This document shows positions 12,419-57,217 of a stretch of DNA of 64,000 nt, in pieces. A model generated the notes under the pieces. That model was not told the origin of the DNA. It saw only the letters and a program-made list of their open reading frames with translations, and searched no databases. This DNA comes from Candidatus Haiyanarchaeum thermophilum. Its GTDB lineage: Archaea > Nanobdellota > Nanobdellia > JAPDLS01 > Haiyanarchaeaceae. Numbering within the stretch: position 1 is the stretch's first letter; the number at the start of each line of letters is the position of its first letter. A program made the position numbers and the translations under genes. The stretch covers positions 59,425 through 123,424 of the forward strand of contig JAPDLS010000002.1 in NCBI GenBank assembly GCA_025920425.1. The letters are read 5' to 3'.

Positions 12419-12465
12419 AATTTGGAAAGATACAGCATCCAGGCTTTCTAAAAAGATGATAAAAT

Positions 12466-12559
12466 GCGGGGGCTGGGATTCGAACCCAGGAAGGCACTAA
12501 GCCATCAGGTTTCACAGAGCTCTTGAGCCTGACCCCTTTGACCGCTTGGGTACCCCCGC
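12466..12559 (-). tRNA. tRNA-Leu (CAA), class II, with probable ~11-nt intron
   Basis: GCGGGGG/CCCCCGC acceptor, TTCGAAT T-loop, TCAGG/CCTGA anticodon stem enclosing 18 nt (7-nt loop CTCAAG.A plus ~11 nt). Confidence 0.88.
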
Positions 12560-51167: not shown

Positions 51168-54100
51168 GTGAAGTGGACTAGGATACTCAGAGAATATTTG
51201 GTCTACATCCTATTTCTGTTGGTAATTTTACTTTCCCACATAATTTTATACGATTCAGGCATAGTACTGGCGGTAAGCCTATGCTGCGCTCCAGTTAGAG
51301 TAAATCTCACGAATTGTTCTGCTACTAATTGCCCCTATACTCCGACCCTTTGCACTCCATGCATAGCCTATAATGATACTGGAGTATGCCCATCTACCCG
51401 AGTTATTACTTATAGTCCATCCTCAACCACCGTAATAACTTCTGGCTGGACGAATCCCACATATGCCTATGCCTCGGATGATCTACGGACCTATACCTCG
51501 ACAGACGGTGCCGAGCAGGAGTATAGCGGTTACGGCATAAATGTACCTTGGGGGGCCACAATCAATAAAGTGGAGGTAGGAGTTGAAAGCTATACCACAC
51601 TTCCAGATTATGAGGTACTCTCTGTCAGAATTTACGATGGGAGTAAGTGGTACAGTGCAGTTGTAGATACTTACTCCTCAGAAACACTTGAATGGATCGA
51701 TTTTACCACATCCACCACATGGACTCCTGAAAAGGTTAACTCAATTAAGACGAGAATCTATTACTACTACACTGGGGGTGGGGGAGGATGCTATCCAAAC
51801 TTTACCAAGGCAATAGTATATTCAGATCACCATTATTCGTTCAAAGCTCCAAATGAGATCCAAATAGGAGAAGATATATTATGTTGGAATGAAAGAGATG
51901 GAGTCCACCTTTGTAGGGTAACTGGAATAGATAAGCATAGTGGAGAATGGAAGCTCCTAAACTTCTCCATAGCAAATCTAAGCTTGGTAGTTACGGATAA
52001 TCATCCAATTCCAAGTCCTGAGCTAAATAAGACAATGGAAGCCAAGGAATTTAAGCCAGGGATGAAGCTAAGGGTATTGCTAAATGGCTCAATCTCTTTG
52101 GCTGAGATCTCATCCATCGAGGAACTAAATTTCATAGGAGAGGTATATGATATAAAGATAAATGAAAGCAGCATATTGCTTCTCCTATCCAATCCTCCCT
52201 CTAATAAATTCTCCTCCCTAGATTCTTTAAGTGCCATAGACGCAGAAATAAAGACATACTATGTGGACTGGCTCCCTGTAAGGATAAATTATACTTGCAC
52301 CACTCTTTGCTACGGAACTAATACTGGCGATAATACAGCATGTGCTAATTTACCAATTAACTATTGCAGCTATGCAGGTGCTACTTATTTCGCTGACCAA
52401 TGTAATAGTACTGGAGGAGGTGTAATCGATAGAGCAGATTATATCTGCAGAAGCTCCAGTTTTGCTTCAGATTGTACTGCAGCTTCCCAATGCTCAAATG
52501 TCTATTGGGGATATTGTGCTTTAGGAAATCCGCCTGTGGGCTTCTGTGGAAACAATACAGTTGGAACACCCTGCCTCTTAAACACTTCTGAACAGTTAGC
52601 TCAGGCCTGTCATTGTGTAATATGTGGAGCTCAAAATCAGACACCACCTACTCTTTGCGGAAGGCTTTTCAATCAAACGAGATACTTTACCTCTTATACT
52701 CGGACAGTAAATACAGTTACTGCTAACAGCCTAGGATTCCAAGTAAAGGATGAGCTCTCTCAGGCATGGCTTCTTACTAGTAATCCGAGAGCAAATTTTA
52801 GTATAGGAATCAAAGTATATGTCCTTAACTCAACTGGTGGAAAGACGCTGATCAGTGGAACTGATCCTATAGGTGTGGTGACGGTTTTATTAGGAGAAGA
52901 AAAATGCCTAAGCACGAGTTGGAATGCACCAGATTATCTTCTAGCTAGTACAGATGCCATCTTAGTGGAGTTTTATGGAAGATTTGAAAATGATCCTTGG
53001 ACAATGCTCTCAGGAGCTAGCAGGTTTGTTACTGAGGTGTTAAATGCAAGTAAATTGAAGACTAGTACATGGAATATAAGTTATAGGGTAGGATGTGATA
53101 CATATGTGGGTTATGTAACCTTTGATTCTATCTCTTCTGGAGGAAATTGTAGCAAGATTTCCAATTTCATTTACATTTCTGCTGATTCCAATTTTAATCC
53201 AAATTCTTGGTCAGGAGATATAGTTCAGAAGTGCTGCGGGGATAATGCTAACGAGTATGTTACTCAAGTTAAATTGGCTAATTTATCTCCATTTGAGAAC
53301 TTCCTTCCCCAATACATTGCAGCTTGCTGTAATGCCAGCAACAAATGTGTAGACGGAGGAATATGTTATTCAAACTGGAGTAGAAGGCCAAATACAGATG
53401 CATTCTGTCATGATGCTCATTGGCGTGATATAGATGATTCCCCAACCTACTGCGAGGCAGCAATAGGCCCAAATTCATGGAACCTAGGTCCCAGTGCTGA
53501 AGAGACTTTATATGGCTACAATGCATGCTGTGGAGATGATCCCAATGAATTCAAAAGATGGAGGGAATGTTCAAGTGAGGCAGTTTGTAGCACATCGATT
53601 TATGATATAGCTTGTTGTAATGCCAGCAACAAATGTGTATATGATTTCACATGTTATTCCAATGGAAGCTTCATAGACATAAATAACGATCAAATAGCTG
53701 AGTACTGTAATGAGGGAATATGGAGCCCAAGCATTCTCTGGATAAGGAATTTGAGCACAAGTTATGTGTATACTAAGGTAGGGGAGGAAATAAAGGTACA
53801 TTACTACGTAGAATACACAATGTTTGAATTTAATGCAAGCTGGATTGAGATCACTGGGGCAATTACTCTTACCCAATTAGCCCAATGCTCTCAGCTTTCA
53901 ACAGGATTAGTAGAGTGTATTACTAATTTCACAGCTCCTCAGGAAGGAGAGTACAACATTAGAGTTAAGGCTAATAATACTGCGGGCCACCTCACTGCTG
54001 CCTTTACAAAAGTATATACGTGTGAACTGCTCAAGAGTATAAGCCTAACAAGTGAGCCAGGAGTTATAGATGAACGAAAACTCCTGATTTTTTTCAATAG

Positions 54101-54338
54101 AACTCACTTAGAGTGCGTAAAGGAGACATTAGGTCTCACAGGTTATGGATTTATATTTGAAGTGAGGGATGCACGAGGAGACCTGCTTCAGATAAGGGAT
54201 GAGGATGGAAATCCATTACCATGTAGGCTTCCGAGAGAAGCAACATTGCCTAGGAATGTGGAAGTAGCTACATCCAAGAGATATGCTACTTACAAAAACC
54301 AGCTGGTTACTCTTCTTCTATATCTCTGGAAACTTTAG
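51168..54338 (+). CDS. Large secreted Cys-rich surface protein with embedded Hint domain
   Basis: 1056 aa; N-terminal TM; repeated CCGD..NE, ACCNASNKCV modules; Hint-like segment aa ~208-342. Confidence 0.8.
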   Translation: MKWTRILREYLVYILFLLVILLSHIILYDSGIVLAVSLCCAPVRVNLTNCSATNCPYTPTLCTPCIAYNDTGVCPSTRVITYSPSSTTVITSGWTNPTYAYASDDLRTYTSTDGAEQEYSGYGINVPWGATINKVEVGVESYTTLPDYEVLSVRIYDGSKWYSAVVDTYSSETLEWIDFTTSTTWTPEKVNSIKTRIYYYYTGGGGGCYPNFTKAIVYSDHHYSFKAPNEIQIGEDILCWNERDGVHLCRVTGIDKHSGEWKLLNFSIANLSLVVTDNHPIPSPELNKTMEAKEFKPGMKLRVLLNGSISLAEISSIEELNFIGEVYDIKINESSILLLLSNPPSNKFSSLDSLSAIDAEIKTYYVDWLPVRINYTCTTLCYGTNTGDNTACANLPINYCSYAGATYFADQCNSTGGGVIDRADYICRSSSFASDCTAASQCSNVYWGYCALGNPPVGFCGNNTVGTPCLLNTSEQLAQACHCVICGAQNQTPPTLCGRLFNQTRYFTSYTRTVNTVTANSLGFQVKDELSQAWLLTSNPRANFSIGIKVYVLNSTGGKTLISGTDPIGVVTVLLGEEKCLSTSWNAPDYLLASTDAILVEFYGRFENDPWTMLSGASRFVTEVLNASKLKTSTWNISYRVGCDTYVGYVTFDSISSGGNCSKISNFIYISADSNFNPNSWSGDIVQKCCGDNANEYVTQVKLANLSPFENFLPQYIAACCNASNKCVDGGICYSNWSRRPNTDAFCHDAHWRDIDDSPTYCEAAIGPNSWNLGPSAEETLYGYNACCGDDPNEFKRWRECSSEAVCSTSIYDIACCNASNKCVYDFTCYSNGSFIDINNDQIAEYCNEGIWSPSILWIRNLSTSYVYTKVGEEIKVHYYVEYTMFEFNASWIEITGAITLTQLAQCSQLSTGLVECITNFTAPQEGEYNIRVKANNTAGHLTAAFTKVYTCELLKSISLTSEPGVIDERKLLIFFNRTHLECVKETLGLTGYGFIFEVRDARGDLLQIRDEDGNPLPCRLPREATLPRNVEVATSKRYATYKNQLVTLLLYLWKL
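51789..52193 (+). other. Hint (intein/Hedgehog-type) domain within 51168..54338
   Basis: C1 in CYPNFTKAIVYSD, IQIGEDILCW, block-B-like VVTDNHPI (TxxH), block-F-like VYDIKI, candidate terminal Asn in LLLLSN. Confidence 0.7.
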
Positions 54339-54340
54339 CT

Positions 54341-57217
54341 ATGGGATCTAAGGGGATAATTTTTACCCTAGACGCTATCCTTACAATTTCCTTTCTAGCT
54401 ATATTCATCATCCTTTTCTTTTCAGTTTATAGAGGTTACTATTACTCATTCTACGAATATGATGTAAGGATTAGAGAATATCTCCTCGTCTCAGATCTCC
54501 TAAAATCTTTGGAGAAACAAGGAGTACTAACTAAACTTGCGATCTCAAAGGAGCAGAAAAGGTTATTGGTGGAGAATAGTGTAGTATTAGGAGAAAGCTA
54601 TGTAACTCCATTCCTTCCAAATCAAAGAGCAATTTGTAGGAGTGCTGAAGGATCCGTTCATGTGGTTTGGAGATATAATGATACTGTAGTAAAATATGCT
54701 AGATCTACAGATGGGGGAAAAAGTTTCCAAGTCATAGATCTCGACAATTCAAGTTATACTAAGGGTACTCCTCACATAAGTTGTGATAAAAATTTTGTTA
54801 CGATTGGATACAGGAATTATACTGGTCTTGTAATTGCACTTTCTGAGGATAATGGGGAAAGCTTTTCATTTAGATCTCCTAGGACTCAAAATGTAGATGA
54901 AGTAATTGTGGAACGAAGAGGAGAGAAAATTTATGTTGTTTATAAAGATTCCCTAGATCCATCCAGTATTATTTTCTTCTCCTCCAACGATTCCGGAAAT
55001 TCATGGAGCAATGATGTGACATTATTCGAGGGAGAGGAGTTATACTTTCAAGGACAGCTTCAATATTATTTTAGCTTTAGTTTACCATCCTTCACAGTGG
55101 AAGGAAATGGTAGTGATACAGATAAGTTAAGTGTAGTAGCTGTTGAATACTATTGGGATCCTTGGTGGAGTACTTTTTCCATTTACTTTAGATTTTCAAA
55201 TAACAGCGGGGCTAGTTGGACTCCTTTGAAATTCATAACCAGTTCTAGCTCACAGATTTTTTCAATTACTTTCATTTCTCATGCCAATTCCCTCTATCTA
55301 GCATTTACCAACGAATCCTTCTCCATTTTTTTAGTAAATTCCAGCGATTATGGGGAAAACTGGAGTAATGCTACCCAAATAAGTAAGGGTTCCTTTCCAG
55401 AATTCTATGCAGCATATCCCACCATTACCTTTAACTCCTTCAACCTCCCCACGATCTTTTACTCCAAGAACATAGGAATAAATTCTAGGAATTTCCTCAT
55501 TCCAGACGGAGTGATAAATTTAGCATATAAAGCAGAAAATTCCACTGCCACATCTCCAGATGGAGCCACTATTCCATTCTCCTCTGCTGAGTATGCCCTT
55601 GTCAATGATTCAGACCTCATTAGGCTTAATGTCTCTCCAATTGATAATTCAGCGTTTACTAAATTCGTATTTAATCTCTCAAAGCTCAACATTTTTTCTC
55701 GGGATGTAATAAATTTGACCTATGCACTTCAAGGTTATTATTCAGGAGATCTGGCTCAAACTAAATACAAATTTCATACTTCATGGCTTACAGGAGAAAA
55801 TATGAATACTGTTGAACAGTATTATGTCAGAAGTTTTTCCGGTTTATCCCTCAGTGGAGTGATACGGGATGGAGTATTTCAATTGGGCACGGCCCAGCAG
55901 AATACTAGTGTAGGAGAAGATTATACGTTTATAAACTATGTATATGTGAATGTTACCTATAGATTGCCTTTACAGATAGCATATGCTGGCTTCTTCCGCG
56001 ATGAGTGGAAAGATGAGGACTTCCTTGGAAAAGAGGCTGAAGACAATCTCTTCTTGAATTCTAGATCAGCTTATGCAGGAAACTCCATAGAACTTGTCTA
56101 TGGAAGAGGAAGGATGCCTCCTTACAAGATCATATATGCTCTCGTGAGAGATTGGGAAGAGATTGCGATATCCAGCTTAGCCCAAGTAGATAAGTGGAGA
56201 ATTGAGTTAGCAGTTGAGCCTATTCAAATCAATCAAGCTAGGCATATGAGGAGCGATACACATTCTGTTAATGGGTTAAACACCTATAAGTTGGGTACCA
56301 CTGTTTCAGACCAGCCAGTTTACATACAAGGAGACTGTACAGATACAGGAAGTTTTTACCTAGGAATTAGGGTATGGAGAAGATTGAGCAATCAGACCGA
56401 GATCGAGATCACGAATGGAGTGGCTGTAGGAATAGTCTCATTACTTGTAGGTAGAACTGAAATCGTTACTACTCTCTCTTCGACATGGCAGGCTCCAAAT
56501 TTCTCTCTAGATCCTACAGATTCCTTAGTGATAAGAGTTTATGGAGGTCTCTCCACCCCACCCACATCTCTATTGGCGACCTTTACCACAGAGATCTTAG
56601 GAGCCCATAAGCTTCTCTCCTCAACGTGGAAGATAAACTATAGGGTGCGAAGAATAGTATTTGATAATCCACCTACCAGTTGTTTCGACTTTTTATTTGG
56701 AACTTCCCAAAATGACAGCTATGTAGAAAATCTTACCTATGAGCTTTCGCCCATTTGGCTCAATTATTCCTACAATTGGGAAGGTTCTGAGGTTTTCATG
56801 GCCAGAACCATTTCTCTAATTACTAACTTTACTGAGATACATAAGGAAGGAGGGTTAGCCAATAAGCTCGAGGTGGAAAGTGGAACACCCTATTCGGTGC
56901 TGAAAGTAATAGTTAGAGGTTTGAGGAGTATGGATTTAAACCTACCAGAAAATACTAGCCTCTCAATCAATTGCGAGGTCTTAGATTTGCTCGATCGTAA
57001 GTTGGGATGGAGTATTTCTATTTCTCCTACCATTTTAGTTAATTCCTCATATCAAGACTTCAATGTGTGCAACATAACCATTCCAGAGATAGTCAACATT
57101 CAGAAATATAGAGTAAATGTAACTCTATCCAATTTAACTTATAGCACTAGTAAATATGGGATCTCAGAGTTTTACCTATTTAAACCAGCATATATTAAAC
57201 TTTATTTAGCAAGATGA
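54341..57217 (+). CDS. Pilin-like N-terminus fused to Asp-box (BNR/sialidase-like) repeats and beta domain
   Basis: N-terminal hydrophobic pilin-like helix; STDGGKSF, SEDNGESF, SNDSGNSW, SNNSGASW, SSDYGENW. Confidence 0.8.
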   Translation: MGSKGIIFTLDAILTISFLAIFIILFFSVYRGYYYSFYEYDVRIREYLLVSDLLKSLEKQGVLTKLAISKEQKRLLVENSVVLGESYVTPFLPNQRAICRSAEGSVHVVWRYNDTVVKYARSTDGGKSFQVIDLDNSSYTKGTPHISCDKNFVTIGYRNYTGLVIALSEDNGESFSFRSPRTQNVDEVIVERRGEKIYVVYKDSLDPSSIIFFSSNDSGNSWSNDVTLFEGEELYFQGQLQYYFSFSLPSFTVEGNGSDTDKLSVVAVEYYWDPWWSTFSIYFRFSNNSGASWTPLKFITSSSSQIFSITFISHANSLYLAFTNESFSIFLVNSSDYGENWSNATQISKGSFPEFYAAYPTITFNSFNLPTIFYSKNIGINSRNFLIPDGVINLAYKAENSTATSPDGATIPFSSAEYALVNDSDLIRLNVSPIDNSAFTKFVFNLSKLNIFSRDVINLTYALQGYYSGDLAQTKYKFHTSWLTGENMNTVEQYYVRSFSGLSLSGVIRDGVFQLGTAQQNTSVGEDYTFINYVYVNVTYRLPLQIAYAGFFRDEWKDEDFLGKEAEDNLFLNSRSAYAGNSIELVYGRGRMPPYKIIYALVRDWEEIAISSLAQVDKWRIELAVEPIQINQARHMRSDTHSVNGLNTYKLGTTVSDQPVYIQGDCTDTGSFYLGIRVWRRLSNQTEIEITNGVAVGIVSLLVGRTEIVTTLSSTWQAPNFSLDPTDSLVIRVYGGLSTPPTSLLATFTTEILGAHKLLSSTWKINYRVRRIVFDNPPTSCFDFLFGTSQNDSYVENLTYELSPIWLNYSYNWEGSEVFMARTISLITNFTEIHKEGGLANKLEVESGTPYSVLKVIVRGLRSMDLNLPENTSLSINCEVLDLLDRKLGWSISISPTILVNSSYQDFNVCNITIPEIVNIQKYRVNVTLSNLTYSTSKYGISEFYLFKPAYIKLYLAR

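What the first reader, a model, noticed from the sequence alone, without database searches (positions are those of the whole stretch)
51789..52193. Hint/intein-like domain inserted in a Cys-rich archaeal surface protein
Seen: aa 208-342 (135 aa) begin with Cys (CYPNFTKAIVYSD), contain IQIGEDILCW, VVTDNHPI (TxxH block B), VYDIKI (block F) and a candidate terminal Asn (LLLLSN). The flanks (TPEKVNSIKTRIYYYYTGGGGG / YYVDWLPVRINYTC) read like one beta-sandwich domain that has been interrupted. Known: Hint domains catalyse protein splicing or autocleavage. There is no penultimate His and the +1 residue is Pro, so canonical splicing looks unlikely. Inference: autoprocessing (N-terminal cleavage, cross-linking or anchoring) of a surface protein, or a decayed intein.
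Basis: partly seen in the sequence, partly recalled or inferred. Interest (0 to 1): 0.82.

Follow-up and report, generated by a model that had tools for sequence, protein, structure and literature searches.

The report
Intein-like domain in archaeal surface protein
A protein-cutting domain of the intein/Hedgehog type sits inside a sugar-coated surface protein of a small archaeon and seems to have kept the first half of its chemistry while losing the half needed to cut itself out, and the search for its relatives turned up surface-protein inteins that hide complete toxin-antitoxin operons on their opposite strand.

Summary
Residues 208-341 of a 1056-aa secreted protein (window 51168-54338) form a Hint domain. 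The model (pLDDT about 90 over the core) matches BIL, intein and Hedgehog structures (Foldseek E 4e-7, probability 1.0). The full interruption is C208-K362 (155 aa, 51789-52253), because an insert-free paralogue in the same genome reads GSGSG|TYYVDY. By that boundary the +1 residue is Thr363, not Pro343. Cys1, TxxH and the block-F Asp are present. The block-F His and a ligatable terminal His-Asn are missing. The insert is rich in N-glycosylation sequons (6 against 1.6 expected, p=0.0015), like other secreted proteins here and unlike cytoplasmic ones, so it is probably retained outside the cell rather than spliced out. Best reading: a one-sided Hint capable at most of N-terminal thioester chemistry (cleavage or transfer at Gly207-Cys208). 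An inert remnant is the main rival. Activity is inferred, not shown. A near-identical copy and a divergent paralogue exist in the genome. In passing: inteins in surface proteins of other genomes of this class carry antisense toxin-antitoxin operons (VapBC, DUF433/DUF5615, YafQ-type) where a homing endonuclease would sit. I found no description of this in the papers I could search.

The parts
51168..54338 (+). Host gene: 1056-aa secreted, Cys-rich protein with an N-terminal hydrophobic anchor or signal; GTG start assumed
   Evidence: ORF; 50 Cys and 30 sequons; no Pfam family above its cut-off
51387..51788 (+). N-terminal part of the interrupted, predicted all-beta host domain, ending ...YYYYTGGGGG (aa 74-207)
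   Evidence: Aligned to insert-free paralogue L004 and to L003; strands in the model at low to medium confidence
51789..52253 (+). Whole insert, C208-K362 (155 aa)
   Evidence: Boundaries from the empty site in L004, GSGSG|TYYVDY; G+C 0.38 against 0.46 in the host domain before it (measured over 51789-52259)
51789..52190 (+). Hint core, aa 208-341
   Evidence: AlphaFold model with pLDDT about 90 over the core; Foldseek to BIL, intein and Hedgehog Hint folds
51789..51791 (+). Cys208, block A residue 1 (nucleophile of the N-S acyl shift)
   Evidence: Alignments; also Cys in paralogue L003
51993..52004 (+). Block B TxxH, T276-D-N-H279
   Evidence: Alignment; H is invariant in all 8 aligned Hints
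52143..52160 (+). Block F VYD328IKI; Asp at F:4, no F:13 His
   Evidence: Alignments
52191..52253 (+). Low-confidence tail N342-K362 where block G (His-Asn) would end; the insert ends in Lys
   Evidence: Sequence; pLDDT under 50 from aa 340 on
52254..52295 (+). C-terminal strand of the host domain, TYYVDWLPVRINYT (aa 363-376); Thr363 is the +1 residue
   Evidence: Insert-free L004 TYYVDYIAIKVEYT and L051 RLDWLPVNVTYT
51526..52293 (+). Near-identical DNA copy at the start of the same contig (G000:C7:1-768) in a gene with a different C-terminal part
   Evidence: DNA alignment; Hint part: 2 synonymous and no non-synonymous differences in 157 codons
51798..52169 (+). Six N-glycosylation sequons in the insert (aa 211, 265, 270, 287, 306, 332)
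   Evidence: 6 against 1.6 expected; STT3/AglB gene in the genome

Best explanation
A Hint domain, probably a former mini-intein, is lodged in the Gly-rich loop before the last strand of a beta domain in a secreted archaeal surface protein (shown). It is kept in the mature, N-glycosylated protein instead of being spliced out (inferred from sequons and from the missing C-terminal catalytic residues). The residues of the first step (Cys208, TxxH, Asp328) remain, so the domain should at most form a thioester at Gly207-Cys208. This could be resolved by water or another nucleophile, cutting the chain before Cys208 or transferring the membrane-anchored N-terminal part. The last strand and the 680-residue C-terminal part would stay attached to the Hint. 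That step is inferred.
For: Hint fold. Empty site in the same genome and in another family. First-step residues are kept both here and in a paralogue only 35% identical. The block-F His and terminal His-Asn are absent. Sequons are enriched in the insert (6 against 1.6, p=0.0015) as in secreted proteins of the window (2.4-fold) but not in cytoplasmic ones (1.16-fold), and not in the other Hints and inteins checked. An STT3 oligosaccharyltransferase gene is present. C239 and C249 face each other across a predicted hairpin turn and are absent from L003, so they may form a disulfide that leaves C208 free (inference).
Against: No biochemistry. Conservation of four residues between two paralogues is weak evidence of activity. 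The sequon test rests on one 155-aa segment. Paralogue L003 shows no significant sequon excess (2 against 0.66, p=0.13). The GGGGG|TYYVDW junction with +1 Thr would restore the host domain exactly, as for a splicing intein.
Confidence: 0.5

Rival explanations
1. Inert intein remnant: a mini-intein that lost its terminal Asn and assisting His residues and persists as a passive, glycosylated domain in a tolerant loop.
For: The insertion site is a variable Gly-rich loop. C-terminal catalytic residues are missing. A low-confidence tail replaces block G.
Against: Cys208, TxxH and Asp328 are kept in both paralogues although only 35% of Hint residues are identical. The frame is open in all three copies.
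Confidence: 0.32
2. It still splices, by an unusual route ending at Lys362|Thr363 or with another residue cyclising, giving GGGGG-TYYVDW.
For: Exact restoration of the host domain and a Thr nucleophile at +1. Another surface-protein intein without His at the penultimate position (L022...SGN|S) sits exactly at its empty site.
Against: Terminal Lys cannot form the succinimide that ends splicing; known alternatives are Gln, Asp and Glu (PMC4031507). The sequon excess suggests that the insert stays outside the cell.
Confidence: 0.1
3. Ordinary continuous beta domain with chance Hint-like motifs.
For: No Pfam or NCBIfam Hint family passes its cut-off on the window copy.
Against: Profile, fold and paralogue evidence and insert-free homologues.
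Confidence: 0.02

Closest known systems
Bacterial intein-like (BIL) domains, B type
   Same: Hint motifs except the C-terminal one; lies in a variable region of a non-conserved secreted protein; B-type is described as able to cleave at its N-terminus (PMC7765530)
   Different: Found here in an archaeon, inserted precisely inside a folded domain; activity untested; no direct sequence comparison with B-type members was possible
Class 1 mini-inteins (Pho RadA; Mja KlbA as a class 2 relative)
   Same: Best sequence matches in the PDB; Cys1, TxxH, Asp F:4; +1 Thr; exact empty site
   Different: No F:13 His, no G:6 His, no terminal Asn at the ligation point
Hedgehog Hog-Hint domain
   Same: Fold (1at0, rmsd 2.6); first-step chemistry without Asn cyclisation
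   Different: Hint is internal, with about 680 residues after it; no sterol-recognition region was seen
Hints of other surface proteins in this archaeal class (L016, L023, L052, L055)
   Same: Gly-rich linker before a Cys1 Hint in secreted proteins
   Different: Those keep ...VHN and VYN (A-type BIL look); the window copy has VYD and no HN

Membership tests
Hint superfamily | Horseshoe Hint fold | tested here: met
   Foldseek E 4e-7, probability 1.0; TM-score by target 0.7-0.78
Hint superfamily | Cys/Ser1 and block B TxxH | tested here: met
   C208, T276, H279
Intein (splicing) | Interrupts a host domain that is continuous in homologues, with exact boundaries | tested here: met
   L004 and L051
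Intein (splicing) | Terminal Asn (or Gln/Asp/Glu) with assisting His residues | tested here: not met
   Insert ends AEIK|T; no F:13 or G:6 His
Intein (splicing) | C-extein +1 Cys/Ser/Thr | tested here: met
   Thr363 by the empty site
Intein (splicing) | Protein splicing activity | not testable with these tools
   Needs expression and mass spectrometry
BIL type A | Conserved C-terminal His-Asn | tested here: not met
   Absent
BIL type B | Intein motifs present except the C-terminal motif | tested here: met
   Blocks A, B, F present, G absent; definition from PMC7765530
BIL type B | Sequence kinship with known B-type members | not tested
   No set of B-type members at hand
Hedgehog Hog domain | C-terminal Hint followed by a sterol-recognition region | tested here: not met
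   Hint is internal (aa 208-341 of 1056)
Surface-protein inteins with antisense toxin-antitoxin operons (found here) | Profile match to their N and C halves, and a nested operon | tested here: not met
   Weak profile scores; tree neighbour only at 92/65; no such operon in the window copy

The most novel reading that the evidence does not exclude
The domain is a Hedgehog-like device of an archaeal surface protein: a retained extracellular Hint that forms a thioester at a poly-Gly end and passes the membrane-anchored N-terminal part to an outside nucleophile (a lipid, a glycan or a neighbouring protein), so fixing or cross-linking pilus-associated surface proteins.
Probability: 0.1. Interest if true: 0.88.

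Novelty: new variant of a known kind. Interest (0 to 1): 0.6.

Why it matters
If the domain is active, an archaeon uses one-sided Hint chemistry outside the cell to process a surface protein, comparable to BIL or Hedgehog processing. If it is inert, it is a clear case of an intein turned into a permanent glycosylated domain. Its relatives matter more: inteins in surface proteins of related genomes carry complete toxin-antitoxin operons on the opposite strand in place of a homing endonuclease, which suggests a way for inteins to persist by addiction rather than homing.

Tried and rejected
Pfam and NCBIfam scans of the window copy gave no Hint family above its cut-off; weak PUA_4 and S1 matches were dismissed as below cut-off and contrary to the fold. 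Two contig-collection scans (genomes and viral) found no relative of the whole host-domain-plus-insert unit. I tried to read the end of the paralogue Hint in L003, but its contig ends there and no overlapping sequence exists in the genome. The next codon starts with A, so the residue directly after ...GLIA is not His. I considered that the window Hint belongs to the surface intein family carrying toxin-antitoxin operons; profiles and tree do not support it. I considered independent acquisition of the two Hints; they form one clade (99/93), yet synonymous divergence is saturated in the Hint and 0.58 in the host domain (p=1.8e-6), which points to recombination or gene conversion of the host domain. 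A tRNA synthetase search did not settle which archaeal lineage this is.

Full report
What was checked. The window gene 51168-54338 (+) encodes 1056 aa with an N-terminal hydrophobic segment, 50 Cys and 30 N-glycosylation sequons. It stands next to several small genes whose start resembles archaeal pilin signal peptides (my reading of the sequence). The genome is a 723-kb assembly in 14 contigs, estimated 92% complete. It is an archaeon (archaeal SRP RNA). The sampled relatives are small genomes of the same class only, so a DPANN lineage is likely but not established.

Identity. Single-sequence phmmer against the PDB finds the Mja KlbA (MJ0781) and Pho RadA inteins at E 0.005-0.007 over blocks B to F. 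A profile of the window copy and its paralogue finds them at 4e-5 and 9e-5. hhalign to a set of Hints from other genomes of the class gives 98% probability over the whole length. AlphaFold with 11 sequences gives mean pLDDT 78.7, about 90 over the core. In that run the homologues had been cut before block G, so that neither candidate C-terminus was favoured. Foldseek lists Hint structures throughout its first 50: Tetrahymena BIL2 at E 4.4e-7, NpuDnaB intein with TM-score 0.78 by target, Clostridium BIL, and Hedgehog 1at0 with rmsd 2.6. A first model including the host domain gave the same answer at lower confidence.

Boundaries. An insert-free paralogue in the same genome (L004, G000:C7 minus strand) reads RLEYTYSGSGSG|TYYVDYIAIKVEYT, where the window reads RIYYYYTGGGGG-[insert]-TYYVDWLPVRINYT. 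A more distant insert-free homologue, L051, reads GTGGTVHCRLDWLPVNVTYT. The insert is therefore C208-K362 with Thr363 at +1. Aa 340-365 are modelled with pLDDT under 50.

Active site. Present: Cys208, T276xxH279 and Asp328 in VYD. Absent: the block-F His and the His-Asn of block G at the point where splicing would have to end; the insert ends in Lys. The review PMC4031507 lists terminal Asn, and in some cases Glu, Gln or Asp, as the residue that cyclises. Canonical splicing is therefore unlikely. The first step, an N-S acyl shift at Gly207-Cys208, is not excluded.

Copies. The same unit is present almost identically at the start of contig C7: 100% of Hint residues, with 2 synonymous differences in 157 codons. 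There it is followed by a different C-terminal part. A third copy, L003 at the end of contig C8, has 79% identity in the host domain but 35% in the Hint. Synonymous divergence is 0.58 in the host domain and saturated in the Hint (40 of 100 against 63 of 84 sites, Fisher p=1.8e-6). Since the two Hints still form one clade (99/93), the simplest reading is recombination or gene conversion that renewed the host domain. The Hint start C-F-P-D-N-T in L003 is the more canonical one. No other Hint was found in the genome.

Retention. In this window 15 cytoplasmic proteins have 27 sequons against 23.4 expected from composition, and 11 secreted proteins have 124 against 51.1. The insert has 6 against 1.6 (p=0.0015). 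None of the other Hints and inteins tested shows a significant excess. An STT3/AglB-type oligosaccharyltransferase gene is present. The insert therefore looks like a domain that has lived outside the cell. Caveat: this is one short segment, and the paralogue L003 has only 2 against 0.66.

Mechanism. Shown: a Hint fold, exact insertion, first-step residues kept, last-step residues lost. Inferred: retention on the surface, and thioester chemistry at Gly207-Cys208 leading to cleavage or transfer. An inert remnant is nearly as likely. By the description in PMC7765530 the motif pattern is that of a B-type BIL domain, which lacks only the C-terminal motif and can cleave at its N-terminus. Membership in that family was not tested by kinship.

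Surroundings in other genomes. Hints are common in this class: 217 of 383 genomes have a match. Several sit in secreted proteins after Gly-rich linkers, with ...VHN ends (L016, L023, L052, and three in tandem in L055). One intein in a LamG-type surface protein (L022) ends ...SGN|S exactly at the empty site seen in paralogues of its own genome.

Unexpected find. A related set of surface-protein inteins of 354-677 aa starts CYDNxTEI and, where the end was read, ends WSGN|S. Between blocks B and F they contain a Ser/Asn-rich stretch that, read on the opposite strand, encodes toxin-antitoxin operons. Pfam and NCBIfam identify PIN_2 toxins (E 4e-18 to 2e-21) with VapB-like antitoxins, DUF433 with DUF5615, and a YafQ/ParE-type toxin. 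In the six operon-bearing inteins laid out, the antitoxin gene precedes the toxin gene. The two abut, are separated by 3 bases, or overlap by 4 bases in the VapBC and YafQ cases, and overlap by 29 bases in the DUF433 case. L102 carries two pairs. They occur in genomes G185, G228, G330, G086, G096, G379, G321 and G312, and not in the non-surface inteins checked. The intein frame is kept open across the operons: 0 stops where synonymous shuffling gives 9.0 on average, never fewer than 3 in 500 shuffles. Viral relatives of these inteins carried no match to these toxins or antitoxins. A literature search in the held library found no description; that library lacks most subscription papers and preprints. 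The window Hint has no such operon and is not a member by profile.

Verdict. The finding is real: a Hint domain interrupting a surface-protein domain, with a changed C-terminal half.

Noticed in passing
L099 (G185), L100 (G228), L101 (G379), L102 (G330), L103 and L104 (G086), L105 (G096), L106 (G321), L122 (G312): Inteins in large surface proteins carry toxin-antitoxin operons (VapBC, DUF433/DUF5615, YafQ-type) on the antisense strand between blocks B and F, where a homing endonuclease usually sits; the sense frame is kept open across them.
   Followed up: partly
L022 (G162), 410-1075: Intein in a LamG-type surface protein, C1...SGN|S, exactly at the empty site of insert-free paralogues; no match to the toxin or antitoxin queries.
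   Followed up: yes
L055 (G398), 418-1824: Three Hint domains in tandem in one secreted-looking protein, each ending in VHN.
   Followed up: no
L019, L082, L094, L095, L097: Inteins inserted in the catalytic GGQ motif of a peptide chain release factor (GGQ|C...HN|S) in five genomes.
   Followed up: no
window 54341-57217: 958-aa protein with a pilin-like hydrophobic start and BNR (sialidase-type) repeats; part of it resembles aa 501-671 of the finding's gene.
   Followed up: no
window 51526-52293 and G000:C7:1-768: Host domain plus Hint duplicated almost identically; copies lie at or near contig ends, so the repeat probably broke the assembly.
   Followed up: partly
window 12465-12559: ARAGORN calls a tRNA-Leu with anticodon AAG that Rfam does not report at gathering threshold.
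   Followed up: no
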